DNA from: a filamentous cyanobacterium Phorm 6
GTDB taxonomy: Bacteria > Cyanobacteriota > Cyanobacteriia > Cyanobacteriales > Microcoleaceae
Assembly: GCA_003003725.1 (NCBI GenBank)
Contig: PVWI01000025.1
Coordinates: forward strand, 1 to 35,947
Direction: 5' to 3'
Length of the DNA stretch: 35,947 nucleotides
Each line of letters starts with the position of its first letter. Positions within the stretch are counted from its first letter, which is position 1. The notes beneath the pieces are model-generated. The model ran no database searches. It saw only the letters and a list, made by a program, of their open reading frames with translations, and had not been told where the DNA came from. Position numbers and translations under genes: made by a program. Shown here one piece after another: positions 22,057 through 35,947 of the stretch.

Positions 22057-22543
22057 TCAATAGCAACAGCATAATTTGTGGTGGGGCGGGCTTTGGGCTC
22101 GCCCCATTTTTTATAGGAGAAGAAAGAAGGAAGAAGGAAGAAGTCATTAGTCATTAGTCATTAGTCATTAGTCATTAGTCATTAGTCATTAGTCATCAGT
22201 CAGTAGGGGCGGTGGATGGTGCGTGCCCGCCCTCTTAGTTGTCATTAGTCATTAGTCATGTTTTGCTGTCCCCCCGGAGCTTTCCGTCCAACGTCATCAG
22301 TCCGATGGAAGTCGGAAGACGGAAGACGGAAGACGGAAGAAAATCAAACCTTAACCCGCTGCGGTGGGTTTCGTTTGTTTGGCGTGCGAATTCCATTTGC
22401 CCGGTCTTATGTATATTTCAAAATTTTGAGATAAGTTATAAGTTATTGGGTTAAATTCCCCGTTACCCAATTACCAATTACCAATTACCAATTACCAATT
22501 ACCAATTACCCATTCCCGATTCCCCATTACCCATTCCTTTATC
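22057..22543. repeat. Repeat-dense spacer with several heptamer arrays
   Basis: After the tkt terminator the spacer consists mainly of STRR arrays: GGAAGAA (about 22115-22142), TCATTAG in eight copies (22144-22199) with a further pair near 22241-22257, GGAAGAC in about three to four copies (22315-22341), and CCAATTA in about six copies (22469-22512) passing into degenerate CCCATTA units up to 22535. The last array directly abuts the start codon of the ethylene-receptor-type kinase, so it lies in that gene's leader. No gene is seen. Confidence 0.88.
22082..22112 (+). terminator. Intrinsic terminator of tkt
   Basis: The stem TGGGGCGGGC (22082-22091) and GCTCGCCCCA (22097-22106), with one G-U pair, has a 5-base loop and is followed by six T residues (22107-22112). 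It begins 26 bases after the tkt stop. It is the clearest Rho-independent terminator in the window. Confidence 0.88.
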
Positions 22544-25357
22544 ATGTGGACTTTTTTAAATCACCTGTTATTCACCGCGAATTATATTCCTCACGGGCAC
22601 TGTTACCTTTGGCAGCGAGAGCTAGTCGCGCTCCATATAGTGTCAGACTCTATAATTGCCCTGGCCTACTATTCAATACCGCTATCGCTAATTTATTTTC
22701 TCTGTCACGGAAAAGACTTGCCCTTTCGCAACATCTTTTGGCTGTTCGCAGCTTTTATTATCTCCTGCGGCACTACTCATCTAATGGAAGTTTGGACGCT
22801 GTGGCATCCTGTTTATTGGGTTTCTGGCAGTCTGAAAATGATTACCGCCGCGATTTCTGCTTACACCGCTTTTGCATTAATTCCTTTAGTTCCCCAAGCA
22901 TTAAATCTCGTCAGTCCAACTCAATTAGGGATGATCGATCGCATCCTGCAACAAGAAATCATCGAACGCCAAAAAACAGAAGCTCGCTATCACACTTTAA
23001 CTGAAGCTTCGCCGGTGGGAATATTTTATACAGACGCTTTAGGAGACTGCTTGTATGTCAACGAGCGCTGGTGTCAAATTTCGGGAATGACCTGCGATGA
23101 AGCTTTGGGCAAAGGGTGGTTGCAAGGCATTCATCCAGACGACCGCCAGCGGGTTTGTGCCGAATGGTATAGCGCCGCGCAGCAGAAATTGCCGTTTAAA
23201 TCTGAGTACCGCTTTCAAGGCATCGATCGCATTCAAATCAGTTGGGTATTCGGTCAAGCTGTCGGTCAAATTGGAGAAAATGGGGAGGTTAAAAGTTATG
23301 TTGGTACTATTACTGATATTACAAAACGCAAGCAGGTAGAAGAGGAAAATAGACTGCTCAATGAAACTCTGGAGCATCGAGTTGCTGAGCGCATTGCTCA
23401 AATGGAAATTTCTCACCACAATTTGCCCGAAGAAATAGCCTACCGAGAAAGAATTGCGATAACTTTGTTGGAATTGACGCAACTGCAAAATGCAATTCTT
23501 AACAGCGCTCACTACACAATTATTTCTACAGAGCCCGACGGTACAATTAAAACATTTAATCGGGCCGCACAGCAACTTTTAGGCTATTCCCCCGAAGAAG
23601 TGGTGGGGAAAGTCACGCCAGCAATAATTCACGATCCTCTAGAGGTAGATAAAAGAGCTGAAGTTCTTTCTCAAGAATTGGGAGTAAAAATAGAGCCGGG
23701 ATTTGAGGTTTTTGCTGTATTACCTCGCCGGGGAATAGCTGACGAAAATGAATGGACTTACATTCGCAAAGATGGTTCGCGGTTTCCGGTACTGCTGTCG
23801 GTGACTGGCTTATTTGACAGCAACGGCAATATCACTGGCTTTTTGGGTATCGGTCAGGATATTAGCGATGCCGCGGCGGCAGCTACGCAACGCAAACAAG
23901 CTGAAATAGAACTGCGCGACCTCACCGCTGCCATGCAAAATGCGGTGGAAGGCATTGCGCGGCTGGACATTGAGGGACGCTACGTGAATGTTAACCGAGC
24001 TTACGCTCATAGATGCGGTTACGAACCGGAAGAAATGCTCGGCATGGAATGGCAGCTCACCGTACATCCGGGCGATGTTGAGATGCTGATCTCAGCTTAT
24101 CAGGAAATGCTAACTTCTGGCAAAGTAGAAGTTGAAGCTAGAGGCGTTCGGAAAAATGGCTCGTTTTTTTACAAGCAAGTAACAATGGTCAAAGCTTGCG
24201 ATGCCCAGGGGATATTTAACGGCAACCACTGTTTTATGAAAGATATCACCGAGCGCAAACTAACTGAAACAGCTTTGCAGGAAAGCGAATTCAAATACAG
24301 GCAAATAGTTGAATTAGCAGAAGAAGGTATTTGGGTAATTGATAGTAATACCCTCACGACTTACGTGAACAACGCAATGGCGCGAATGCTCGGCTATAGT
24401 GAATTAGAAATGTTCGGGCGGTCGCTTTTTGATTTCATGGATGAACCGGAAAAACAACAAGCTCTTGATAATGTCGAGCGGCGCAAGCAAGGTATTGGTG
24501 AACAACACGAATTTAAATTCAAAAGCAAGGACGGCCAAGATATTTGGACTTATCTTTCTACCAGTCCTGTATTGGACGAGCAGGGTAATATGCTGTCATG
24601 TTGCGCGCTAGTTTACAACATTACAGACCGCAAAGCAGCAGAGCAGCAAATGCTGCAACTTACAGAAGATTTGAAGCGTTCCAACGAGGAATTAGAACAA
24701 TTTGCTTATGTGGCTTCCCACGATTTGCAAGAACCGCTCCGAGCCGTTACCAGTTACGCTCAATTGCTCGCCCACCGCTATCAAGACAATTTGGATGCTA
24801 AAGCAGATAAATATATTCATTATATTGTTGACGGCGCTACCAGAATGCAACAATTGATTAATGATTTGTTGGCGTATTCGCGCCTGGGAACCCAAGGTAA
24901 AAAATTTGAGCCGGCGGACTGCCACGCTGCTGTGCAGCAAAGTTTGTGCAATTTGCAAATTGCGATCGCCGAAAAGAAAGCTGTCATCACCTGCGACGCG
25001 ATGCCAACCGTGATGGCGGATGAATTTCAACTGGTGCAATTATTCCAAAATTTGATCGCCAACGGCATCAAATTTTGCCGCGAAGATATCCCGTTGATTC
25101 ATATCGCTGCGGGCCGGCAAGATAGCGAATGGGTGTTCAGCGTGCGCGATCGGGGCATTGGCATCGATCCGCAGTATGCCGATCGCATTTTTATTATTTT
25201 TCAACGCCTGCACTCTCGCCGCGAATATTCCGGTACTGGCATAGGTTTGGCGATGTGCAAGCGCATTGTGGAACGCCACGGCGGGCGCATCTGGGTGGAA
25301 TCTCAGGAGGGAAAAGGAGCGACTTTTTACTTCACTATTCCTATAATTAGTATCTGA
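22544..25357 (+). CDS. Ethylene-receptor-type membrane histidine kinase with four PAS domains
   Basis: A 937-residue sensor kinase. The N-terminal 120 residues form the three-helix ethylene-binding domain of ETR1-type receptors: HGHCYLW at 17-23, HIVSDSIIALAYYSIP at 31-46 and FIISCGTTHLMEVWTLW at 71-87. Asp35, Tyr42, Ile45, Pro46, Ile72, Cys75 and His79 correspond one-for-one, offset by ten, to plant ETR1 residues that bind copper and ethylene. Four PAS domains follow (about 147-270, 310-440, 455-580, 585-700). The kinase core has the H-box VASHDLQEPLRAV with His726, N box NLIANGIKF, G1 DRGIGI and G2 GTGIGLAM. The SHDLQEPLR H-box type is typical of kinases paired with Rcp1-like regulators, and one lies 48 bases downstream. 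Unlike Synechocystis Slr1212 I see no GAF domain. The ATG sits directly after heptamer repeats, with no ribosome binding site visible. Confidence 0.95.
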   Translation: MWTFLNHLLFTANYIPHGHCYLWQRELVALHIVSDSIIALAYYSIPLSLIYFLCHGKDLPFRNIFWLFAAFIISCGTTHLMEVWTLWHPVYWVSGSLKMITAAISAYTAFALIPLVPQALNLVSPTQLGMIDRILQQEIIERQKTEARYHTLTEASPVGIFYTDALGDCLYVNERWCQISGMTCDEALGKGWLQGIHPDDRQRVCAEWYSAAQQKLPFKSEYRFQGIDRIQISWVFGQAVGQIGENGEVKSYVGTITDITKRKQVEEENRLLNETLEHRVAERIAQMEISHHNLPEEIAYRERIAITLLELTQLQNAILNSAHYTIISTEPDGTIKTFNRAAQQLLGYSPEEVVGKVTPAIIHDPLEVDKRAEVLSQELGVKIEPGFEVFAVLPRRGIADENEWTYIRKDGSRFPVLLSVTGLFDSNGNITGFLGIGQDISDAAAAATQRKQAEIELRDLTAAMQNAVEGIARLDIEGRYVNVNRAYAHRCGYEPEEMLGMEWQLTVHPGDVEMLISAYQEMLTSGKVEVEARGVRKNGSFFYKQVTMVKACDAQGIFNGNHCFMKDITERKLTETALQESEFKYRQIVELAEEGIWVIDSNTLTTYVNNAMARMLGYSELEMFGRSLFDFMDEPEKQQALDNVERRKQGIGEQHEFKFKSKDGQDIWTYLSTSPVLDEQGNMLSCCALVYNITDRKAAEQQMLQLTEDLKRSNEELEQFAYVASHDLQEPLRAVTSYAQLLAHRYQDNLDAKADKYIHYIVDGATRMQQLINDLLAYSRLGTQGKKFEPADCHAAVQQSLCNLQIAIAEKKAVITCDAMPTVMADEFQLVQLFQNLIANGIKFCREDIPLIHIAAGRQDSEWVFSVRDRGIGIDPQYADRIFIIFQRLHSRREYSGTGIGLAMCKRIVERHGGRIWVESQEGKGATFYFTIPIISI

Positions 25358-25405: not shown

Positions 25406-25855
25406 ATGAGCGATCGAAGCACTGTTAAACCCGTAGAGATTCTGCTGATTGAGGATTCTCCCAGCGATGCCGATTTGGCAAGAGAAGTCCTGGGTCAGGG
25501 TCAAATATTGAATAACTTGCATTTTGTGGAGGATGGAGTCGAAGCAATCAAGTTTTTGCGCAGAAAAGCACCCTATCTCAGCGTACCCCGTCCTGATTTG
25601 ATTTTGCTCGATTTGCATCTGCCGAAAAAAAGCGGTATGGAAGTTCTGGAAGAAATTAAAACTGACCCGAAGTTAAAATTAATTCCTGTCGTGATTCTCA
25701 GCACTTCTGCTGCTCCCGAAGATATTATCAAGTCCTACTCGCTCCATGCCAACTGTTACATAACCAAGCCTGTAGACTTCGTACAATTTACTAAAGTAGT
25801 CAGGTTAATTGAGGAATTCTGGATCGAAGTCGTCAAACTTCCTATAAATTATTGA
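25406..25855 (+). CDS. Rcp1-like single-domain response regulator
   Basis: A 149-residue stand-alone receiver protein. The acidic pocket is Glu16-Asp17, the phospho-acceptor is Asp69 (LILLDLHLPKKSG), the switch Ser/Thr lies in VVILSTSAAPED, and the conserved Lys is in CYITKPVDF. The C-terminal helix (FTKVVRLIEEFWIEVVKLP) and the DSPSDADLAREVL opening match the Rcp1/CheY-like regulators that receive phosphate from cyanobacterial phytochrome Cph1 and similar kinases. Its position 48 bases behind the ethylene-receptor-type kinase, whose H-box belongs to the same class, makes that kinase the probable donor. It has no DNA-binding or enzymatic output domain, so it must act by protein contact or as a relay element. 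A weak AAAGGA site precedes the ATG. Confidence 0.95.
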   Translation: MSDRSTVKPVEILLIEDSPSDADLAREVLGQGQILNNLHFVEDGVEAIKFLRRKAPYLSVPRPDLILLDLHLPKKSGMEVLEEIKTDPKLKLIPVVILSTSAAPEDIIKSYSLHANCYITKPVDFVQFTKVVRLIEEFWIEVVKLPINY

Positions 25856-25991: not shown

Positions 25992-27491
25992 ATGTGGATT
26001 AAAATTCTGTTAGTAGAAGACAATCCGGCTGATGCTGATTTGCTTGCAGAACTGTTGGAACTATCTGTGGGCGTCCAGTGGGAACTGGTGTCTGTTGAGT
26101 TTCTGCATCAGGCGATCGCCCAACTGTGCACAAAACCCTTTGATGTAGTTCTACTCGACTTTTCTTTACCGGACAGCCGTGGTTTGGAAACGCTAACTCG
26201 CCTGCAAGAAGTTGCGCCCGATACGCCAATGGTGGTAATGACCGGCTTCGACAATGAGGCTATAGCCCTGGAATCTGTTCGCTTGGGAGCCCAAGATTAC
26301 ATTGTTAAAGGTCAAATTACTACTCCATTATTAGTGCGGACAATTCGCTACGCGATCGAACGTTCCCAAACATTTCAAATGCTCAAGGAAAGCGAGCGGC
26401 GTTTTCGGGCGATTTTTGACTCTTCGTTTCAGCTAACCAAGCTGCTGACTCCCGAAGGGATCGTGCTGGAAGTGAACGAGACAGCACTAGAATTTACAGG
26501 AACGCGATCGGAAGATGTTGTGGGTAGCCCAATTTGGAAACAGCCGATTTGGGAACAGTCACCAAAGGCTAAAGCACAATTAAAAGAAGGGGTTATCAAA
26601 GCTGGTATGGGCGAGTTTTTTCGCACCGAAATGGACTTTTTAGGCAAAAACAACCAAATTATAACAGTTGATTTCTCACTGAAACCTGTTAAAAATGAGA
26701 CAGGACAAGTTTTGCTGCTGATTGCTGAAGCCCGCGACATTAGCGATCGCAAACGAGCAGAAGCGGAAATTCTCAAATCACTCGCACGAGAAAAAGAACT
26801 TTCAGAACTCCGAGCTAAATTTGTCACAATGGTTTCCCACGAGTTCCGAACACCCTTGACAACCATCCAATTTTCGACTGGATTGCTCCAAGATTACAGT
26901 GTTCAGTGGTCAGAAGATAAAAAAATTACTCATTTTGTACGGATTCAATTAGCCATCAAACGCATGACAGAATTATTAGAAGATATCCTCGTAATTGGTA
27001 AAATTGAAGCAAATACGTTACCTTTTCAACCAGTTTCCTTAAACCTCGAAAAATTTTGCCGTCAACTGGTAGAAGAACAGCAGCTCAACGACAGCAATCA
27101 ACATCCGATCGCCTTTCAACATGAAGGCTGCAACTGCGACGCTCAAATGGATGAAAAACTGCTGCGGCAAATGTTGGGAAACGTCCTCTCAAATGCCATC
27201 AAATATTCCCCCGCCGACAGTACAATTTCCTTGCAGCTAAACTGTCAAAATCAAGAAGCTATTTTTCAAGTTGAAGACCAAGGGATAGGGATTCCCCAAG
27301 CCGATCTAGAGCGGATTTTAGAAACTTTTTATCGAGCGACAAATGTCGGCAATATTTCGGGAACTGGTCTCGGTTTAGCAATTGTCAAAAGGGCTGTGGA
27401 ACTTCACGGGGGCAAACTTGCGATCGACAGTGAAGAAGGAAAAGGCACAACTTTCACTATTACCTTGCCTTTAATGGTCGATCGCCAATAA
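25992..27491 (+). CDS. REC-PAS histidine kinase
   Basis: A 499-residue soluble kinase with an N-terminal receiver domain (1-125; acidic pair Glu9-Asp10, phospho-acceptor Asp56 in VVLLDFSLPDS). One PAS domain follows (about 136-260, ESERRFRAIFDSSFQLTKLL onward), then HisKA with H-box MVSHEFRTPL and His283, and an ATPase domain with G1 DQGIGI and G2 GTGLGLAI. A receiver at the front of a kinase allows its activity to be set by another kinase, so it can work as the second stage of a relay. The usual REC lysine position reads DYIVKGQIT, so Lys is kept but followed by Gly instead of Pro. It is third in the plus-strand cluster after the ethylene-receptor-type kinase and the Rcp1-like protein, 136 bases behind the latter. 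Confidence 0.94.
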   Translation: MWIKILLVEDNPADADLLAELLELSVGVQWELVSVEFLHQAIAQLCTKPFDVVLLDFSLPDSRGLETLTRLQEVAPDTPMVVMTGFDNEAIALESVRLGAQDYIVKGQITTPLLVRTIRYAIERSQTFQMLKESERRFRAIFDSSFQLTKLLTPEGIVLEVNETALEFTGTRSEDVVGSPIWKQPIWEQSPKAKAQLKEGVIKAGMGEFFRTEMDFLGKNNQIITVDFSLKPVKNETGQVLLLIAEARDISDRKRAEAEILKSLAREKELSELRAKFVTMVSHEFRTPLTTIQFSTGLLQDYSVQWSEDKKITHFVRIQLAIKRMTELLEDILVIGKIEANTLPFQPVSLNLEKFCRQLVEEQQLNDSNQHPIAFQHEGCNCDAQMDEKLLRQMLGNVLSNAIKYSPADSTISLQLNCQNQEAIFQVEDQGIGIPQADLERILETFYRATNVGNISGTGLGLAIVKRAVELHGGKLAIDSEEGKGTTFTITLPLMVDRQ

Positions 27492-29227: not shown

Positions 29228-31834
29228 CTATATAGAATATATCGCCCGTTTCACACATCGCTGCATATAAATTTGAACTACCTTATCCTCACGGTTGATT
29301 TGCTTGCACTCCGAAAACAATCTTCTCGCTTCGATAAACCTCTCCTTATTGTACAATACCAAAGCTTCCTCAAAGATTGTCTTTGTCTCTAACTTTTTTT
29401 GTCGCAACTCCGGCGGATCTGCCGTGAATATTTCATAAATTGTTACCAATTGCGATTTACCTTTTACTGTGACGCGATCGATCAATCTAAAATCATAAAT
29501 ATCGGTCAACTGTAGAAAAGTATTGTGAGTAATTAACATCGAAACTCCATACTCTTTTGTCAGATTTTCCACGCGGGAAGCTAAATTTACCGCATCGCTA
29601 ATCACCGTGCTGTCCATCCGACTTTGGCCGCCAACCGTGCCTAACATCAAAGAACCCGTATTGATTCCAATGCCAATTTGCAGCGGCGGGCGATCGGGTT
29701 GATGACGGCTGATATTATACTCTTTAAGCTGTTCTAACATCGCAATTCCAGCTTTCACAGCATCGTCCGCACTGCCATTAAACAGCGCCATAATCGCATC
29801 GCCAATGTATTTATCAATGAACCCAAAATTTTCAGTAATTACTGGTTCCATCCGCGACAAATAAGCATTAATAAATTGAAAATTTTCTTCAGGATTCATA
29901 GTTTCAGAAAGAGTAGTAAAATCGCGAATATCTGAAAACAGCACCGACATTTCTTTCTGTACTTGATCGCCTAATTTTACCTCCAGAATACTTTCATATC
30001 CCAGAAAGTGGAGAAATTGATGCGGCACAAACCGCCCGTAAGCATCTGTTAATTTTTCTTCCGCTGCTAAAGCTTTTTCGAGCTCGTTTGTGAATTTTTG
30101 CCGCTCGGTTTCTACCTCTTGGCGCTCTGTGATATCTTGAAAAACCGCGATCGCGTAAACTATGTTTTTCCGTTCGTCGTAGATTGGAGTCGCCCAAACC
30201 TCGATCGGCACAATCTTCTCCGGGCGGTGAATTTCCGCATCGTCAACGTGCACCACTTCCCCCCGCAGCGCCCGCACAATCGGCTGGATATCCTCCGAAT
30301 ACAGCTCATTGCTTCGGGCACAATAAATTTGATAAACTGCCGACAAATTGCTAGGAACAACATCAGAAACCAAGCCTTTGCCAAATATTTTCTCAGCCCA
30401 AGAATTCATATAGCAAGGTTTTCCGACACCATCTACCACAAATATACCCACCGGCACCGCTTCCAGCAATTGAGTCAGCCGACTTTCACTTTCTAACAGC
30501 GCTTCATTTAAATTTTCTTGAGCTACTAAAGCTTTTTCCAAATCATTTGTAAACCTGAGCCGTTCCACATCTACCAGTCTTCGCAAAGTAATATCCTCAG
30601 CAAAACCTTGATAGTAAAGCACCTCACCCCTAGCATCGAAAACAGTGCGCGCATCCTCAGAAATCCAAATAATACTACCATCTCGGCGGTAAACTTCCGA
30701 CTCAAACTCAGACACAGTACCGTACTGTTCCATCAGCGCAAAAAATTCTTGACGGCGGTGCGGTTGCACGTATAATTCCCGCTGAATATCATTAACACTT
30801 GCGATCAATTCTTCAGGAGAATCATAGCCGTAGATTTGAGCCAGAGCAGGATTAGCGCTGAGCAACTTTCCATCAGGTGCAGTCTGAAAAATACCCTCAA
30901 GAGCATTTTCAAATATCCGGCGATACTTCTCTTCAGCTTGCACCAGCGCCGTTTCAGCTTGCTTGCGTTCCGTAATATCAGTAAAAGCAATAATCCCGTA
31001 GCAAATATCGCCAATAGAATCATAAATAGGAGTCGCCCAACTCTCCACCGGAATAACCTTATTCCCAGTCCGAATTTCTACACCCTCAGTCCGCACTGTT
31101 TCGCCCCGGAGCGCCTGCATAATTGGCAACTCTTCCACAGGACATCTCTCATTAGTTCCGGCTTTATAAAATTGATAAATTGCCGCTTTCTGCTCCGAAT
31201 TAATATGCGGCACAGTACCTTTACCAAAAACCTCCCGCGCCTTCTGATTTGCATAAAAAGATTGACCGTTAGCATCCAGCACGCACACGCCCAGCGGCAT
31301 AGCTTCCAGATATTGCGTCAACCGACTTTCGTTTTCGTGGAGTTTGGAAATCAGCATCGCCTGCTTACGGTTTAATCTGGCCAACTCCTGATTCATCTCC
31401 TGAAGTTCTATTTGTTTTTCAGCTAATTGTTTATCTTGAAAATATCTGTATATTGCCTCAGTAACAGTTAATTTCAAGTCATCAGATTGCCAAGGTTTAG
31501 GTATGTATCGGTACAATTTAGCATAGTTTATAGCATTAGCTACCGCCTCCAAATCAGCCTGCCCCGTCAGCATAATCTTGAGAGTATTCGGCGAGATGGC
31601 ATGAACGCTCCTCAATAGCTCGTCTCCTTTCATATTCGGCATGATATGATCGGAAATAACCAAAGGAACTTCATACTGTTCTGCTAAAAGTTCAGACAGC
31701 AACTCCAAAGCTTCTTCGCCGCTTTGGGCAGTTTCAATTAAATATTTATCTTCAAAGGCTTTGAGCAAGTCTATTTCCAGACTATCGAGTATAGTCTGCT
31801 CATCATCGACACAAATAATGACTGGTTTTTTCAT
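29228..31834 (-). CDS. Receiver-PAS-PAS-PAS adenylate cyclase
   Basis: An 868-residue protein that should make cAMP in response to phosphorylation. Receiver domain 1-130: acidic Asp10-Asp11, phospho-acceptor Asp62 (VISDHIMPNMKG), lysine in YIPKPWQ. Three PAS domains follow (about 170-295, 300-420, 445-570), each ending in a D-I-T-(E/L)-R linker. The first and third are close relatives (ESRLTQYLEAMPLG / ESRLTQLLEAVPVG; both with VESWATPIYD/VEVWATPIYD). The class III cyclase domain (about 585-800) has metal ligands Asp635 (LFSDIRDFTTLSE) and Asp679 (DKYIGDAIM) and Lys675 at the adenine-selecting position; STVISDAVNLASRVE supplies Thr and the Asn/Arg pair. The ATG overlaps the stop of the upstream REC gene by 4 bases. 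A helical tail ends the protein. Confidence 0.95.
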   Translation of the reverse strand: MKKPVIICVDDEQTILDSLEIDLLKAFEDKYLIETAQSGEEALELLSELLAEQYEVPLVISDHIMPNMKGDELLRSVHAISPNTLKIMLTGQADLEAVANAINYAKLYRYIPKPWQSDDLKLTVTEAIYRYFQDKQLAEKQIELQEMNQELARLNRKQAMLISKLHENESRLTQYLEAMPLGVCVLDANGQSFYANQKAREVFGKGTVPHINSEQKAAIYQFYKAGTNERCPVEELPIMQALRGETVRTEGVEIRTGNKVIPVESWATPIYDSIGDICYGIIAFTDITERKQAETALVQAEEKYRRIFENALEGIFQTAPDGKLLSANPALAQIYGYDSPEELIASVNDIQRELYVQPHRRQEFFALMEQYGTVSEFESEVYRRDGSIIWISEDARTVFDARGEVLYYQGFAEDITLRRLVDVERLRFTNDLEKALVAQENLNEALLESESRLTQLLEAVPVGIFVVDGVGKPCYMNSWAEKIFGKGLVSDVVPSNLSAVYQIYCARSNELYSEDIQPIVRALRGEVVHVDDAEIHRPEKIVPIEVWATPIYDERKNIVYAIAVFQDITERQEVETERQKFTNELEKALAAEEKLTDAYGRFVPHQFLHFLGYESILEVKLGDQVQKEMSVLFSDIRDFTTLSETMNPEENFQFINAYLSRMEPVITENFGFIDKYIGDAIMALFNGSADDAVKAGIAMLEQLKEYNISRHQPDRPPLQIGIGINTGSLMLGTVGGQSRMDSTVISDAVNLASRVENLTKEYGVSMLITHNTFLQLTDIYDFRLIDRVTVKGKSQLVTIYEIFTADPPELRQKKLETKTIFEEALVLYNKERFIEARRLFSECKQINREDKVVQIYMQRCVKRAIYSI

Positions 31835-32226
31835 AAATTTGCTAGACCAGACTTAATCGCTTCAATTAATTCTTGATTTTGCCAAGGTTTTTGTATGAAA
31901 GCATGAAGATTGGCTTGAGTTTTTGTGCGTTCGATTGCTTCTTTGTCAGCTTGTCCGGTCAGCATCACCGTCACAATTTTTGGATATTTTTGATGGATTT
32001 TAATCAGCAACTCATCTCCTTTCATTCCGGGCATCAACCAATCAGAGACAATCACTAGAATGTTCACCTCATCTTCACAAAGCTCTTCAATAATCTCCAG
32101 TGCTTCGGCAGCACTTTCAGCAAATTCGCAAAGATATTTACCGTTAAATGCCTGTTGCAGTTCAATTTCCAGACTCTCCAACACCGCTACTTCATCGTCA
32201 ACACACAAAATTGCTGGTTTAGACAT
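31831..32226 (-). CDS. Single-domain response regulator paired with the cyclase
   Basis: A 131-residue stand-alone receiver with Asp10-Asp11, phospho-acceptor Asp62 (VIVSDWLMPGMKG), MLTGQAD switch region and FIQKPWQ lysine. It is strongly similar to the N-terminal receiver of the downstream cyclase (SKPAILCVDDE...LESLEIEL / KKPVIICVDDE...LDSLEIDL; shared GQAD and KPWQ), so the two receivers arose by duplication. The KPW form belongs to the RpfG/HupR-like group of receivers. Stop and start codons overlap (ATGA at 31831-31834), indicating translational coupling with the cyclase. It may compete for the same kinase, act as a phosphate sink, or dimerise with the cyclase's receiver. These roles are inference. 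Confidence 0.95.
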   Translation of the reverse strand: MSKPAILCVDDEVAVLESLEIELQQAFNGKYLCEFAESAAEALEIIEELCEDEVNILVIVSDWLMPGMKGDELLIKIHQKYPKIVTVMLTGQADKEAIERTKTQANLHAFIQKPWQNQELIEAIKSGLANL

Positions 32227-32235
32227 TGCTAGTTT

Positions 32236-32241
32236 CCTCCT
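32236..32241 (-). promoter_or_regulatory. Strong ribosome binding site of the single REC gene
   Basis: On the minus strand AGGAGG lies 9 bases before the ATG at 32224-32226. Since the cyclase start is coupled to this gene's stop, this site may set translation of both. Confidence 0.75.
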
Positions 32242-32322
32242 TTAGTCTGGCAGAGCAAACCCAATGGGTAAGCACACCGTTTTCCAAATTCTATATTCCG
32301 CGCCGATATACTGTAAATTTTT

Positions 32323-32346
32323 CGCCCCAGACTTCAGTCTGGGGCG
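32323..32346 (-). terminator. Hairpin after the REC-kinase gene
   Basis: Perfect 11-base arms CGCCCCAGACT (32323-32333) and AGTCTGGGGCG (32336-32346) lie 7 bases beyond the stop of the minus-strand REC-kinase gene. On that strand the hairpin is followed by AAAAATTT rather than a T run, so it is a weak terminator or an RNA-stability element between two halves of the operon. Confidence 0.55.
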
Positions 32347-32352
32347 CTTTAC

Positions 32353-33789
32353 CTACTCAGTTAAATTAATCGGCAAAGACACTATAAATGAAGTTTGACC
32401 GGGCACCGACTCTACATCAATTTTACCTTGATGTTTTTCAATTATTTTTCTGACAATATCCAATCCTAACCCGCTGCCTTCTCCCGCAGGTTTGGTAGTA
32501 AAAAATGGCACAAAAATTTTTGGCAAAATCTCCGGTGGAATCCCCTTACCGCTGTCAGTAATTGTTACGACAACGCTGGTATCTTGCTGCAGGGCATCAA
32601 TTGTCAAGGTTCCTTGATTGTTCATTGCTTGTAAAGCATTGTGAATTAAATTTGTCCACACTTGATTTAGTTCATCTGGATAACACAATACAGTTGGTAA
32701 CTGATTTTGATAATTTCTGACTATTTCCACTCCCTGCTTTAGCTGGTTCTGATAAAGAGTTAATACAGTTTCAATTCCGTCGGTAATATTCACCTGTAAT
32801 TTTTCCCCATTTACATCGTAACGCGCATAATTTTTCAAGGCAAAGACGACTTTTGCAGCCCGTTCTGTAGCGGTAGCGATGGTTCTGGCGCTTCTGTGAA
32901 TGCTAGCAAATTCGTAGGCGGTTTTGATAATATTTTGGCTGTCAGGGTCTTTCAGCAACGGCAAGAATTCTTGCAGGCTTCCCTGCAATCCGATATTTAC
33001 TAAAATGCTAGCAAGGCTGTCAGCATTGTCAATCTCTTCCGCATCTAATTGCTGCTTCAGCCCTTTTTTTAATTCCCGTTTTTCTCGCGTAGATAAAGAG
33101 TAAGTTTGTTGGCGGGAACTGTACATCAAACTCAAAAAATCTTGCTGGCGTTCGGCTGAGAGTTCTTTAAAAAAAACTGGCAAACTTTCGATATTGTTAT
33201 CCAAAAAGCCAGTTATATTACCAATAGACGATCGAATCGCCCCCAGTGGCGTATTGATTTCGTGAGCAATGCCCGCAATCAGTTGCCCCAAGGCGGCAAG
33301 TTTTTCTGATTGAACTAATTGATTTTGTGTTGCTTGCAGTTGGTCTAAAGTGACTGTCAGTTCCTCGTTTTTCTGTTGGAGTTTTTTTTGCAACTGGCAC
33401 ATTGCTAAATGCGTTTCTACCCTAACTAGAACCTCTTCTACTTGAAAGGGTTTGGTAATATAATCTACACCGCCCACTGCAAAGGCTTTGACTTTATCTA
33501 GTACGTCATTAATCGCGCTAATAAAAATCACTGGAATGTCGCGAGTGCGTTCATCAGCTTTGATTTTTTCGCAAACTTCATACCCGTTCATTTCGGGCAT
33601 CATAATATCCAGCAAAATCAAATCGGGCGGCATTCCTTTTGCGGCCGAAAGCGCTAACTCGCCGCTAGGTACGGGGCGGACTTTGTAGCCCTTGCCATTC
33701 AAAATTCCGGCTAGCAGGCGCAAATTAGCTGGGGTGTCGTCAACTACTAAAATATTACCGCGATCTGTGTTAGAAATGTCATTATTCAT
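32353..33789 (-). CDS. REC-histidine kinase with extended HisKA region
   Basis: A 478-residue soluble kinase. Receiver domain about 10-130: acidic Asp17-Asp18, phospho-acceptor Asp61 (LILLDIMMPEMNG), lysine in YITKPFQVEEV. A coiled linker (LQQKNEELTVTLDQLQATQN) leads to the H-box GIAHEINTPLGAI with His176. About 110 residues, with a helical insertion (LSAERQQDFLSLMYSSRQQT onward), separate the H-box from the second helix at ATERAAKVVFALKNYARYD. The ATPase domain has N box NLIHNALQAM, G1 DSGKGI and G2 GSGLGLDI. The start codon lies 8 bases inside the 3' end of the upstream membrane hybrid kinase gene, so the two are translationally coupled and probably act in one pathway: the upstream kinase could phosphorylate this receiver. 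Confidence 0.95.
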   Translation of the reverse strand: MNNDISNTDRGNILVVDDTPANLRLLAGILNGKGYKVRPVPSGELALSAAKGMPPDLILLDIMMPEMNGYEVCEKIKADERTRDIPVIFISAINDVLDKVKAFAVGGVDYITKPFQVEEVLVRVETHLAMCQLQKKLQQKNEELTVTLDQLQATQNQLVQSEKLAALGQLIAGIAHEINTPLGAIRSSIGNITGFLDNNIESLPVFFKELSAERQQDFLSLMYSSRQQTYSLSTREKRELKKGLKQQLDAEEIDNADSLASILVNIGLQGSLQEFLPLLKDPDSQNIIKTAYEFASIHRSARTIATATERAAKVVFALKNYARYDVNGEKLQVNITDGIETVLTLYQNQLKQGVEIVRNYQNQLPTVLCYPDELNQVWTNLIHNALQAMNNQGTLTIDALQQDTSVVVTITDSGKGIPPEILPKIFVPFFTTKPAGEGSGLGLDIVRKIIEKHQGKIDVESVPGQTSFIVSLPINLTE

Positions 33790-35947
33790 GTGAGCTTGCG
33801 TGAGAAATTAACTTTAAAACTTTGTCGTACTCGAAATTTTCTATACAATTTGCGATCGCACCAGCCGTTACTGTATCCTTTAATCTAATTTGGTCGATCG
33901 CACTTTCAATGAAATCCATATCTGCATTCAGTATCGCCAGCTTTAAGTCCGCTAGCAGCGACTCAGGCAATTTCACGAAATCAGCCGCAGTCATTTCGCG
34001 ATCGCGCTCTGGGATTGCCGATAAATTAGCTACACCCGGATCTTCATAAATATAGCGCACTCCGATCTGTTTGTGCATAGCATCGAAAATATCGGCTTCC
34101 CGGAAAGGTTTCCGCATAAAAGCATCGCAGCCCGCCGACAAAATAACGGCTCGTTCTTCCTCCAAAACGCTCGCTGTCAGTGCAATAATAGCAGTAGCTT
34201 GACCTTTAATAGTGCCTTTAATTTGTTTTGTTGCTTCGTAGCCGTCCATCACAGGCATTCTCATGTCCATCCAAATTAAATGCGGTTCCCAACTGTCCCA
34301 AACATCAATAGCTTCTTGACCGTTAGTAGCTTCTTTCAGGTCAAAACCTAGAGGATTGAGAAGTTTAATTAACAGTTGACGGTTCAGCGGTTTATCGTCT
34401 ACTATCAAAATTCGATAGGGATGTTGATTGGGTTCCAGGGCAATCACATTTCGAGTCGGCTTTTGGGTTTCAATATCACCCGCATCGACCGCAATAATTT
34501 GAATGTTAAAATTAAAATTAGTCCCCTTACCGACAGCAGAACTGACGCTCACTTCACCGCCCATTAATTCCACAAATTTGCGGCTAATTGGCAATCCCAA
34601 GCCTGTACCTTCTTGCGAATTTTTGCCTGTTTGGGTTTGCACAAAAGCTTCAAAAAGATTGTCTAATTCATTGGCAGCAATCCCCGGGCCTGTATCTTCG
34701 ACTTCAAAATGAAGAAAAAAGGAATAAGCAGAAGCTGAATAGTCATTTTTGGTTGCATAACTAGCGTTTTCTGAGTGACTTAATTGGGATTGCTTAAAAT
34801 TATTACTTGCTGAAATATCTGTATTTTTTGATTCTTCTGATAGATCATTTTTTTTGCCTTCGATCTGCTGATTTCCGCCTGAAAAATGCTTGCTTACTCT
34901 GACCGAAACACCGCCATCATCGGTAAATTTAAGAGAGTTATTGAGCAGGTTAATCAAGATTTGCCGCAACTTTAACTCGTCAGTTTCTATGTACTGTGGC
35001 ACGTCGGGACTGTGAGTAAAAACTAACTGCAAATGCTTGTCATCTGCTTTGAGTTGAAACATATCTTCCAAGTCGTTGAGCAGGCGATAGAGGTCAAACT
35101 TTTTGGGATTGAGAGTGGTACGCCCCGATTCAATTTTAGATAAATCGAGCACGTTATTAATCAGGGTGAGCAGGTGTTCTCCGCTGCTGTTAATTATGCT
35201 AATATTTTCTTGATGTTCTGGGGATAGAGTTTGGCTGCGAGTCATCAGTTGGGAAAAGCCAAGAATTGCATTGAGGGGCGATCGCAATTCGTGACTCATG
35301 TTAGCCAGAAAGGTACTTTTAGCTTGATTTGCTACTTCGGCTTTGTCCTTAGCTACAGCCAATTCAGCAGTCCGCTCTCGCACTCGCTGTTCTAATGTTT
35401 CAAAGGATTGTTGGAGCTGTTGAGCCATGCTGTTAAAGGATTTAGCTAATTCCCCCAATTCGTCAGAGCGTTGACTTTCTACTGTTTTGTCCCATTCACC
35501 TTTAGCAATATTTTTGGCTGCTGTATTTAATCGCAAAATAGGATTTGTCACCCATTGAGAAGTTTGAATGCCAATGGATACAGCTATTAGTAAAGCTGCG
35601 AAACACAGCCAAATAGTCGTGCGGGTATTGTTATTGATTTCTTCGGTGAAATCTGCTTCGGGAACGACTACTACAATCAGCCAGTCTAAACCTTTGCCGT
35701 CTTGGAATGGTAGAACTTTTACAAATTGTCGTTTGCCATCTATTTCAAAGTTTAATAATTCAGATTTTTGGATTTGGTTTAATTGGTGAAACTGTGCATT
35801 CAAATATTTAGCGGTCGCTTGAGTAATAGGGTTGCTGCTTTCTACCACTTTAAACAATTGTCTTTGATCACCTCTGGTGCGGAAAGGTTTTTCGGTGGTG
35901 GAAGTTGCTAACAAATTACCTTGGCGATCGATCTTAAATGTTTGACC
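33782..35947 (-). CDS. Membrane hybrid histidine kinase, 5' end outside the window
   Basis: The reading frame is open to the window edge: bases 35915-35947 encode GQTFKIDRQGN in frame ahead of a TTG that might be mistaken for the start, so the gene is partial. From that TTG 710 residues are visible. In order: the end of an extracytoplasmic dCache-like sensor (IDRQGNLLATSTTEKPF to LDWLIVVVVPEADF), a membrane helix at about 99-120, HAMP (about 120-175), coiled coil, HisKA with H-box ANMSHELRSPL (His208), ATPase domain with G1 DTGPGI and G2 GTGLGLPI interrupted by a Ser/Asn-rich loop, and a C-terminal receiver with phospho-acceptor Asp550 (WMDMRMPVMDG). The last 90 residues are helical, possibly an Hpt-like remnant, but I see no clear Hpt histidine motif. 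The 3' end overlaps the next kinase gene by 8 bases. Confidence 0.93.
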   Translation of the reverse strand, partial: GQTFKIDRQGNLLATSTTEKPFRTRGDQRQLFKVVESSNPITQATAKYLNAQFHQLNQIQKSELLNFEIDGKRQFVKVLPFQDGKGLDWLIVVVVPEADFTEEINNNTRTTIWLCFAALLIAVSIGIQTSQWVTNPILRLNTAAKNIAKGEWDKTVESQRSDELGELAKSFNSMAQQLQQSFETLEQRVRERTAELAVAKDKAEVANQAKSTFLANMSHELRSPLNAILGFSQLMTRSQTLSPEHQENISIINSSGEHLLTLINNVLDLSKIESGRTTLNPKKFDLYRLLNDLEDMFQLKADDKHLQLVFTHSPDVPQYIETDELKLRQILINLLNNSLKFTDDGGVSVRVSKHFSGGNQQIEGKKNDLSEESKNTDISASNNFKQSQLSHSENASYATKNDYSASAYSFFLHFEVEDTGPGIAANELDNLFEAFVQTQTGKNSQEGTGLGLPISRKFVELMGGEVSVSSAVGKGTNFNFNIQIIAVDAGDIETQKPTRNVIALEPNQHPYRILIVDDKPLNRQLLIKLLNPLGFDLKEATNGQEAIDVWDSWEPHLIWMDMRMPVMDGYEATKQIKGTIKGQATAIIALTASVLEEERAVILSAGCDAFMRKPFREADIFDAMHKQIGVRYIYEDPGVANLSAIPERDREMTAADFVKLPESLLADLKLAILNADMDFIESAIDQIRLKDTVTAGAIANCIENFEYDKVLKLISHASSHE

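What the first reader, a model, noticed from the sequence alone, without database searches (positions are those of the whole stretch)
22544..25357. Ethylene-receptor-type kinase with an intact copper/ethylene site but no GAF photosensor
The first 120 residues match the plant ETR1 ethylene-binding domain, and the seven residues known to matter in ETR1 (Asp25, Tyr32, Ile35, Pro36, Ile62, Cys65, His69) are all present with a constant +10 offset. The characterised cyanobacterial homologue, Synechocystis Slr1212 (SynEtr1/UirS), also has a bilin-binding GAF domain for UV-A sensing. Here four PAS domains take that place and I see no GAF. The protein may therefore be a dedicated chemical (ethylene) and PAS-cue sensor, which would separate ethylene sensing from UV sensing.
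Basis: partly seen in the sequence, partly recalled or inferred. Interest (0 to 1): 0.85.

Follow-up and report, generated by a model that had tools for sequence, protein, structure and literature searches.

The report
PAS-type ethylene-receptor kinase of Microcoleus cyanobacteria
A mat-forming cyanobacterium carries a membrane kinase with the same gas-sensing head as the plant ethylene receptor but without a light-sensing domain, an arrangement that looks common rather than rare, and several close relatives have lost the copper-holding cysteine while keeping the rest of the gene.

Summary
Window 22544-25357 encodes 937 aa: an ETR1_N ethylene-binding domain (EBD), four PAS domains and a HisKA/HATPase kinase, with no GAF and all seven ETR1-critical residues. 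The claimed surprise does not hold: among the EBD proteins nearest to this one, GAF (PF01590) matches 7 of 67, and AzoEtr1 of Azospirillum is already a published ethylene-binding EBD-PAS-kinase. Orthologs occur in 27 of 29 genomes of the genus, own genome included (Microcoleus by matched named contigs). Of 20 ortholog loci checked, 19 keep the same four-gene module; a convergent receiver-PAS-cyclase gene lies downstream in 15 of 15 loci. Unexpectedly, 4 of 27 orthologs have lost the copper ligand Cys75 (ETR1 Cys65) to Ser or Asn, by 3-4 changes on the tree, while the other six residues and the kinase motifs stay. These may be natural ethylene-blind receptors still under purifying selection. 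Ethylene binding by the window protein is likely but untested. Verdict: a new member of a known kind, with a useful natural experiment attached.

The parts
22544..25357 (+). EBD-PAS4-HisKA-HATPase sensor kinase, 937 aa
   Evidence: 27 orthologs aligned
22622..22909 (+). ETR1_N (ethylene-binding) domain, residues 27-122; three predicted long helices 25-55, 62-84, 91-121
   Evidence: PF25487 E 1e-40; AlphaFold2
22646..22648 (+). codon of Asp35 (ETR1 Asp25)
   Evidence: mapping in PMC11819568 passage
22766..22768 (+). codon of Cys75 (ETR1 Cys65), TGC here; Ser or Asn in 4 of 27 orthologs
22778..22780 (+). codon of His79 (ETR1 His69)
22976..23329 (+). PAS 1 (residues about 145-262); probably the one missing in the three short orthologs
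   Evidence: PAS_3 at 170-256; lengths 775-777 aa; L073 has three PAS stretches
23483..23878 (+). PAS 2 (residues about 314-445)
   Evidence: PAS_9 at 326-442
23921..24268 (+). PAS 3 (residues about 460-575)
   Evidence: PAS_4 at 468-572
24269..24649 (+). PAS 4 (residues about 576-702)
   Evidence: PAS at 585-686
24692..24892 (+). HisKA with likely phospho-acceptor His726 (YVASHDLQEPLR)
   Evidence: PF00512 717-783; H726 invariant in 27 orthologs
25019..25345 (+). HATPase_c
   Evidence: PF02518 826-934
25406..25855 (+). single-domain response regulator, 149 aa, 48 bp downstream: likely direct phosphate acceptor (inferred)
   Evidence: PF00072; present in 20 of 20 loci checked
25992..27491 (+). 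receiver-PAS-histidine kinase, 499 aa
   Evidence: 19 of 20 loci (the other contig ends)
27616..28704 (+). receiver-histidine kinase, 362 aa
   Evidence: 19 of 20 loci
29228..31834 (-). receiver-PAS-class III adenylate/guanylate cyclase, 868 aa, convergent with the module (candidate output, link inferred)
   Evidence: PF00211 E 3e-20; 15 of 15 loci
31831..35914 (-). rest of the convergent two-component group: receiver (31831-32226), receiver-HK (32353-33789), HAMP-HK-receiver (33782-35914)
   Evidence: receiver in 15, receiver-HK in 14, HAMP-HK-receiver in 13 of 15 loci, the shortfalls being stretches that end there

Best explanation
This is a membrane sensor kinase of the prokaryotic ethylene-receptor kind. 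Three N-terminal helices hold Cu(I) through Asp35/Cys75/His79 and bind ethylene (inferred from residues; binding is published for ETR1, SynEtr1 and AzoEtr1, not for this protein). Binding, together with unknown cues read by four cytoplasmic PAS domains, sets autophosphorylation on His726 (inferred). The phosphate passes to the single-domain response regulator encoded 48 bp downstream and then, directly or through cross-talk, to the receiver-PAS-kinase and receiver-kinase of the same gene group (inferred from conserved order). It is not a UV/ethylene dual receptor of the SynEtr1 type. In probably three or four lineages of the genus the copper cysteine has been lost while the rest is kept, so the ethylene input appears separable from the rest of the receptor.
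For: ETR1_N at E 1e-40 with all seven residues; three-helix model; the EBDs with these residues that I saw reported as tested, ETR1, SynEtr1 and AzoEtr1, bind ethylene (PMC6682694 and PMC11819568 passages). No GAF among the families listed for 27 orthologs, PAS in 27 of 27. No LOV motif and no Cys-His in the PAS region. Kinase motifs invariant in 27. Four-gene module in 19 of 20 loci, the other contig ending. Cys75 to S/S/S/N in 4 of 27, 4 changes by parsimony and 3-4 over bootstraps, with D35, Y42, I45, P46, I72, H79 and K98 invariant in 27 and EBD dN/dS 0.05-0.35 in the five pairs computed that include a Cys-less copy.
Against: No ethylene or copper binding was or could be measured. Loss of the cysteine in relatives shows that the domain can persist without the site, so presence of the residues is not proof of ethylene use. 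No PAS ligand, no output gene and no phosphotransfer were tested. Well-supported branches force only two changes of the cysteine trait, and one of the four Cys-less genomes (G008) is 86% complete with 7% contamination.
Confidence: 0.72

Rival explanations
1. The ETR1_N domain here is primarily a Cu(I) or membrane redox/metal sensor, and ethylene is at most incidental; metal occupancy of Asp35/Cys75/His79 sets the kinase.
For: The copper site is the conserved feature. A divergent ETR1_N kinase family in the same genus sits directly downstream of a multicopper oxidase, an HHH_3 protein and an FTR1 iron permease in 9 of 9 loci; in the four distinct sequences read it keeps Cys75 and His79, with no residue aligned at Asp35.
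Against: That family is not orthologous to the window gene, whose own neighbours are transketolase and two-component genes. Homologues with the same seven residues bind ethylene, and cells carrying them respond to ethylene.
Confidence: 0.15
2. The EBD is now mainly a membrane anchor and dimerisation device; signalling is by the four PAS domains, and the intact site in the window copy is inherited.
For: 4 of 27 orthologs lost Cys75 while retaining full-length kinase, four PAS and the gene group; three of these four have a faster EBD than intact copies (divergence ratio EBD/rest 1.11-1.25 against 0.83 for intact pairs; the fourth, G010, has 0.67).
Against: 23 of 27 orthologs keep Cys75 and all 27 keep the other six residues plus K98, more than an anchor needs. 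The EBD changes less per column (1.85) than PAS 1-4 (3.81, 2.03, 1.97, 2.95; gaps counted as a state), though more than HisKA and HATPase (0.82, 1.48).
Confidence: 0.2
3. The protein is a hidden photoreceptor: one PAS binds flavin or another chromophore, so light and ethylene are still joined.
For: PAS 4 is nearest by sequence to solved 'multi-sensor histidine kinase' domains (E 5e-7 and weaker) that I recall to be LOV domains; a phototropin also matches weakly.
Against: LOV cysteine motif absent, no bilin-type Cys-His in the PAS region; PAS 2 resembles FixL only weakly (E 4e-6) and in the printed alignment its conserved His363 is not opposite the histidines of the FixL stretch PYRHEHDG (which of them binds haem is recalled).
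Confidence: 0.07

Closest known systems
AzoEtr1 (Azospirillum brasilense ethylene receptor; PMC11819568, passages seen)
   Same: EBD with the seven residues, the four named in the passages at the same numbers (D35, C75, H79, K98), then PAS and histidine kinase, no GAF mentioned; ethylene binding shown; a predicted response regulator gene works with it (passage cut, adjacency not seen)
   Different: 525 aa with one PAS; here 937 aa with four PAS and a larger conserved gene group
SynEtr1/UirS/Slr1212 (Synechocystis 6803)
   Same: Cyanobacterial EBD-histidine kinase that binds ethylene
   Different: SynEtr1 has a cyanobacteriochrome domain and senses light as well (PMC6682694 passage); none here
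GeiEtr1 and GeiEtr2 (Geitlerinema sp. PCC 7105)
   Same: EBD histidine kinases of a filamentous cyanobacterium; two per genome
   Different: Both carry GAF, GeiEtr2 also PAS and a receiver (PMC6682694 passage); the window genome has six readable EBD genes and fragments
Plant ETR1/ERS1
   Same: Copper/ethylene domain with Asp25, Cys65, His69 (PMC12643061 passage)
   Different: GAF after the EBD, different kinase context, ER membrane

Membership tests
ETR1-type ethylene receptor (EBD histidine kinase) | ETR1_N domain over Pfam's cut-off | tested here: met
   138 bits against 27
ETR1-type ethylene receptor (EBD histidine kinase) | seven residues required for ethylene binding | tested here: met
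   D35 Y42 I45 P46 I72 C75 H79
ETR1-type ethylene receptor (EBD histidine kinase) | three N-terminal transmembrane helices | tested here: met
   predicted helices 25-55, 62-84, 91-121, mean pLDDT 78; membrane insertion itself not tested
ETR1-type ethylene receptor (EBD histidine kinase) | histidine-kinase transmitter | tested here: met
   HisKA and HATPase_c, motifs invariant in 27
ETR1-type ethylene receptor (EBD histidine kinase) | copper-dependent ethylene binding | not testable with these tools
   needs 14C-ethylene assay
SynEtr1/UirS-type dual light and ethylene receptor | bilin-binding GAF (cyanobacteriochrome) domain | tested here: not met
   no GAF model at E up to 1; no GAF family among the 15 listed for 27 orthologs at E up to 0.01
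AzoEtr1-like EBD-PAS-HK receptor | EBD, then PAS, then HK, without GAF | tested here: met
LOV photoreceptor kinase | PAS with NCRFLQ-type flavin cysteine (motif recalled) | tested here: not met
   motif absent

The most novel reading that the evidence does not exclude
Within one orthologous, syntenic receptor of the genus, the ethylene input has been switched off repeatedly by single-residue loss of the copper cysteine (Ser or Asn at the ETR1 Cys65 position, the position whose mutation abolishes binding in ETR1 and SynEtr1), while the receptor, its PAS inputs and its relay stay under selection. These would be natural, wild-type counterparts of ethylene-insensitive receptor mutants, showing that bacterial 'ethylene receptors' can be retained for PAS or membrane cues alone and that gas sensing is an optional, evolvable input.
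Probability: 0.45. Interest if true: 0.62.

Novelty: new member of a known kind. Interest (0 to 1): 0.45.

Why it matters
What most bacterial ethylene-binding domains are for is still open. This receptor offers matched pairs: intact and cysteine-less copies of the same gene in the same gene group and genus, so the ethylene contribution can be separated from the PAS contribution without engineering. It also corrects the idea, based on Synechocystis, that a cyanobacterial ethylene receptor is typically a UV photoreceptor.

Tried and rejected
Rejected: a hidden GAF; LOV or bilin motif; haem in PAS 2 by analogy with FixL. Rejected as misleading: nearness of a divergent ETR1_N kinase to genes that look like cydAB (named from sequence by eye) in the window genome; those two proteins had no match in the two relatives read. 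Rejected as an ortholog outgroup: G034 and G036 (another genus), whose proteins share the EBD (69 and 67%) but join the tree by branches of length about 5. Absence of the gene from G007 and G020 is not taken as real loss: in G007 the cyclase begins 172 bases from its contig end, and in G020 the receiver-PAS-kinase begins at base 1686 of its contig. In those searches the receiver-PAS-kinase was missed in 4 of 29 genomes (G004, G007, G025, G026) and the cyclase in 2 of 29 (G004, G026), fragmented assemblies all. PHROGs gave only kinase-part matches. Two papers wanted (Lacey and Binder 2016; Wang et al. 2006) are not held, so their content is known only through citing passages. The excess of Cys75 loss in this gene (4 of 27 against 0 of 42 sibling EBDs) gives Fisher p 0.02, computed on 41 of those 42, uncorrected for relatedness: suggestive only. 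Structure searches with the EBD model were not run. Whether Cys65-type losses in bacterial receptors are already in print was looked for only with the searches.

Full report
What is there. The ORF at 22544-25357 (937 codons from ATG) encodes ETR1_N (27-122, E 1e-40), four PAS domains, HisKA and HATPase_c; no GAF model appears even at E up to 1. NCBIfam's PAS model also finds four stretches. The domain borders fill the protein, leaving a linker of about 50 residues between PAS 1 and PAS 2, so no GAF-sized gap remains. PMC11819568 (passages) gives C65-C75, D25-D35, H69-H79 and K91-K98 as the ETR1-AzoEtr1 mapping, identical numbers to this protein. PMC12643061 (passage) places the copper site at Asp25, Cys65, His69. 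No solved structure matches the first 130 residues at E up to 1. AlphaFold2 with 57 EBDs gives three long helices (mean pLDDT 78).

Setting. The window is a whole contig of a 6.6 Mb genome. The gene follows a transketolase gene; a transketolase match lies upstream in 10 of 15 longer ortholog loci. Downstream on the same strand are a single-domain response regulator (48 bp away), a receiver-PAS-kinase and a receiver-kinase. Convergent with these lie a receiver-PAS-class III cyclase, a receiver, a receiver-kinase and a HAMP-kinase-receiver. The four-gene module is complete in 19 of 20 ortholog loci checked, the remaining contig ending after the regulator; six further orthologs were read for the kinase only, one of them (G001) also for the module. 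The cyclase lies downstream on the opposite strand in 15 of 15 loci read further, in one of them (L176) about 5 kb further away. A link from the kinase to cAMP is a conjecture from this order; PMC7076178 (passages) notes that both cAMP and the ethylene receptor bear on pilus motility in Synechocystis.

How common. PF25487 occurs in 74 of 292 genomes sampled across the phylum and 29 of 29 of the genus, with up to 8 matches per genome, fragments included. The window genome's other readable members include one with neither PAS nor GAF, one with PAS and a receiver, and one with two GAFs, PAS and a receiver. A scan of named genomes confirmed 570 relatives of this EBD, of which the 80 best were kept. 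Of 67 proteins from those loci outside this ortholog group (L077-L143; 13 ortholog loci and one 68-aa fragment left out; three proteins run off their contigs), PF01590 GAF matched 7, GAF_2 7, GAF_3 5, and PAS_4 33; the call gives totals per family, so proteins with any GAF model could be slightly more than 7. Lack of GAF is thus the rule in this neighbourhood of the family; remoter members were not counted. AzoEtr1, 525 aa, EBD-PAS-kinase, binds ethylene (PMC11819568 passages). GeiEtr1 and GeiEtr2 do carry GAF (PMC6682694 passage).

Orthologs. 27 of 29 genus genomes, own genome included, hold an ortholog (72% or more identity over the EBD; sequences read). 24 are 929-938 aa and three are 775-777 aa; a 775-aa copy scanned on its own has three PAS stretches (L073). 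No GAF family is listed for the 27, PAS for 27 of 27.

The unexpected part. Cys75 is Ser in G010 (TCC), G028 (TCC) and G021 (AGC), and Asn in G008 (AAT). G021 has a Cys at 74; the other three have none adjacent. On a tree built without the EBD the trait needs 4 changes (3-4 over bootstraps; well-supported branches force 2). G010 and G028 each sit among cysteine-bearing relatives; G021 and G008 branch at the base of the genus with weak support and may share one loss. Three of the four genomes are 99% complete, G028 in a single contig; G008 is 86% complete with 7% contamination. Of 29 columns invariant across 57 EBDs, C75 is the only one changed more than once in these orthologs. D35, Y42, I45, P46, I72, H79, K98 and the kinase motifs are invariant in all 27, and the four Cys-less proteins keep EBD, four PAS and kinase and the gene group. 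EBD dN/dS is 0.35 between G021 and G008, 0.15 and 0.25 for G028 against two relatives, and 0.05 and 0.09 for G010 against two relatives; the eight intact pairs computed give 0.09-0.44. The domain is therefore still constrained. Sibling EBD classes keep the cysteine in 42 of 42 sequences read (16 A, 21 B, 3 D, 2 in L163; one B copy has P46A), and each of the four genomes has at least one other EBD with the full set (L028 and L178; L020 and L163; L022; L033 and L181). Passages state that mutation of this cysteine abolishes ethylene binding in ETR1 and SynEtr1. The natural Ser/Asn forms are therefore predicted not to bind ethylene; this is inference.

Reading. The window protein most likely is an ethylene-responsive, PAS-modulated kinase feeding a local receiver. 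Shown: domains, residues, conservation, gene order, cysteine losses. Inferred: copper and ethylene binding, phosphotransfer route, PAS ligands, cAMP link. Results against the reading: the site's loss in relatives shows that residues alone do not guarantee use, and a divergent ETR1_N family tied to iron uptake shows that the domain may serve metal sensing elsewhere.

Noticed in passing
L013:2044-6571 (window genome, contig C457); L154, L155, L156, L204-L208; L209: A divergent ETR1_N kinase (open frames 363-500 aa, shortened N-terminus, no residue aligned at Asp35, Cys75/His79 kept in the four distinct sequences read) lies directly downstream of a multicopper oxidase, an HHH_3 protein and an FTR1 iron permease in 9 of 9 genus loci (8 genomes; in L207 the kinase is in two frames), and beside FTR1 in one locus of another family (L209). 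Three other loci outside the genus (L210-L212) did not match this kinase or the iron genes. A candidate copper or iron sensor made from the ethylene-receptor domain.
   Followed up: yes
L152, L153, L179, L180, L182: A large ETR1_N protein class (open frames 1147-1326 aa) lacks Cys75 in 5 of 5 copies read (Gly in four, Ile in one), with Asp35 also replaced in two: a second whole class without the copper site.
   Followed up: partly
L014:6276-8504 and L157, L158: A class of about 742-757 aa with ETR1_N, PAS and kinase has Pro46 to Ala and His79 to Gln or Lys in 3 of 3 copies read, and Trp at Cys75 in two of them (domains of the L014 copy): a degenerate site.
   Followed up: partly
window 29228-35914, minus strand: Convergent conserved group HAMP-HK-receiver, receiver-HK, receiver, receiver-PAS-class III cyclase next to the ethylene-receptor module; the cyclase is there in 15 of 15 loci, one with about 5 kb between. 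Possible ethylene-cAMP connection.
   Followed up: partly
window 22118-22535: Heptamer tandem repeats (AGTCATT about 9 copies, CCAATTA about 10, GGAAGAC about 5) lie between transketolase and the kinase gene.
   Followed up: no
L163 (G028) and L011 (window genome): Two EBD kinase frames stand in tandem on the same strand in G028 (517 and 1247 aa open frames); the likely counterpart of the second in the window genome has two GAFs and a receiver.
   Followed up: no
L198 (G027): One sibling class B copy has Pro46 changed to Ala.
   Followed up: no
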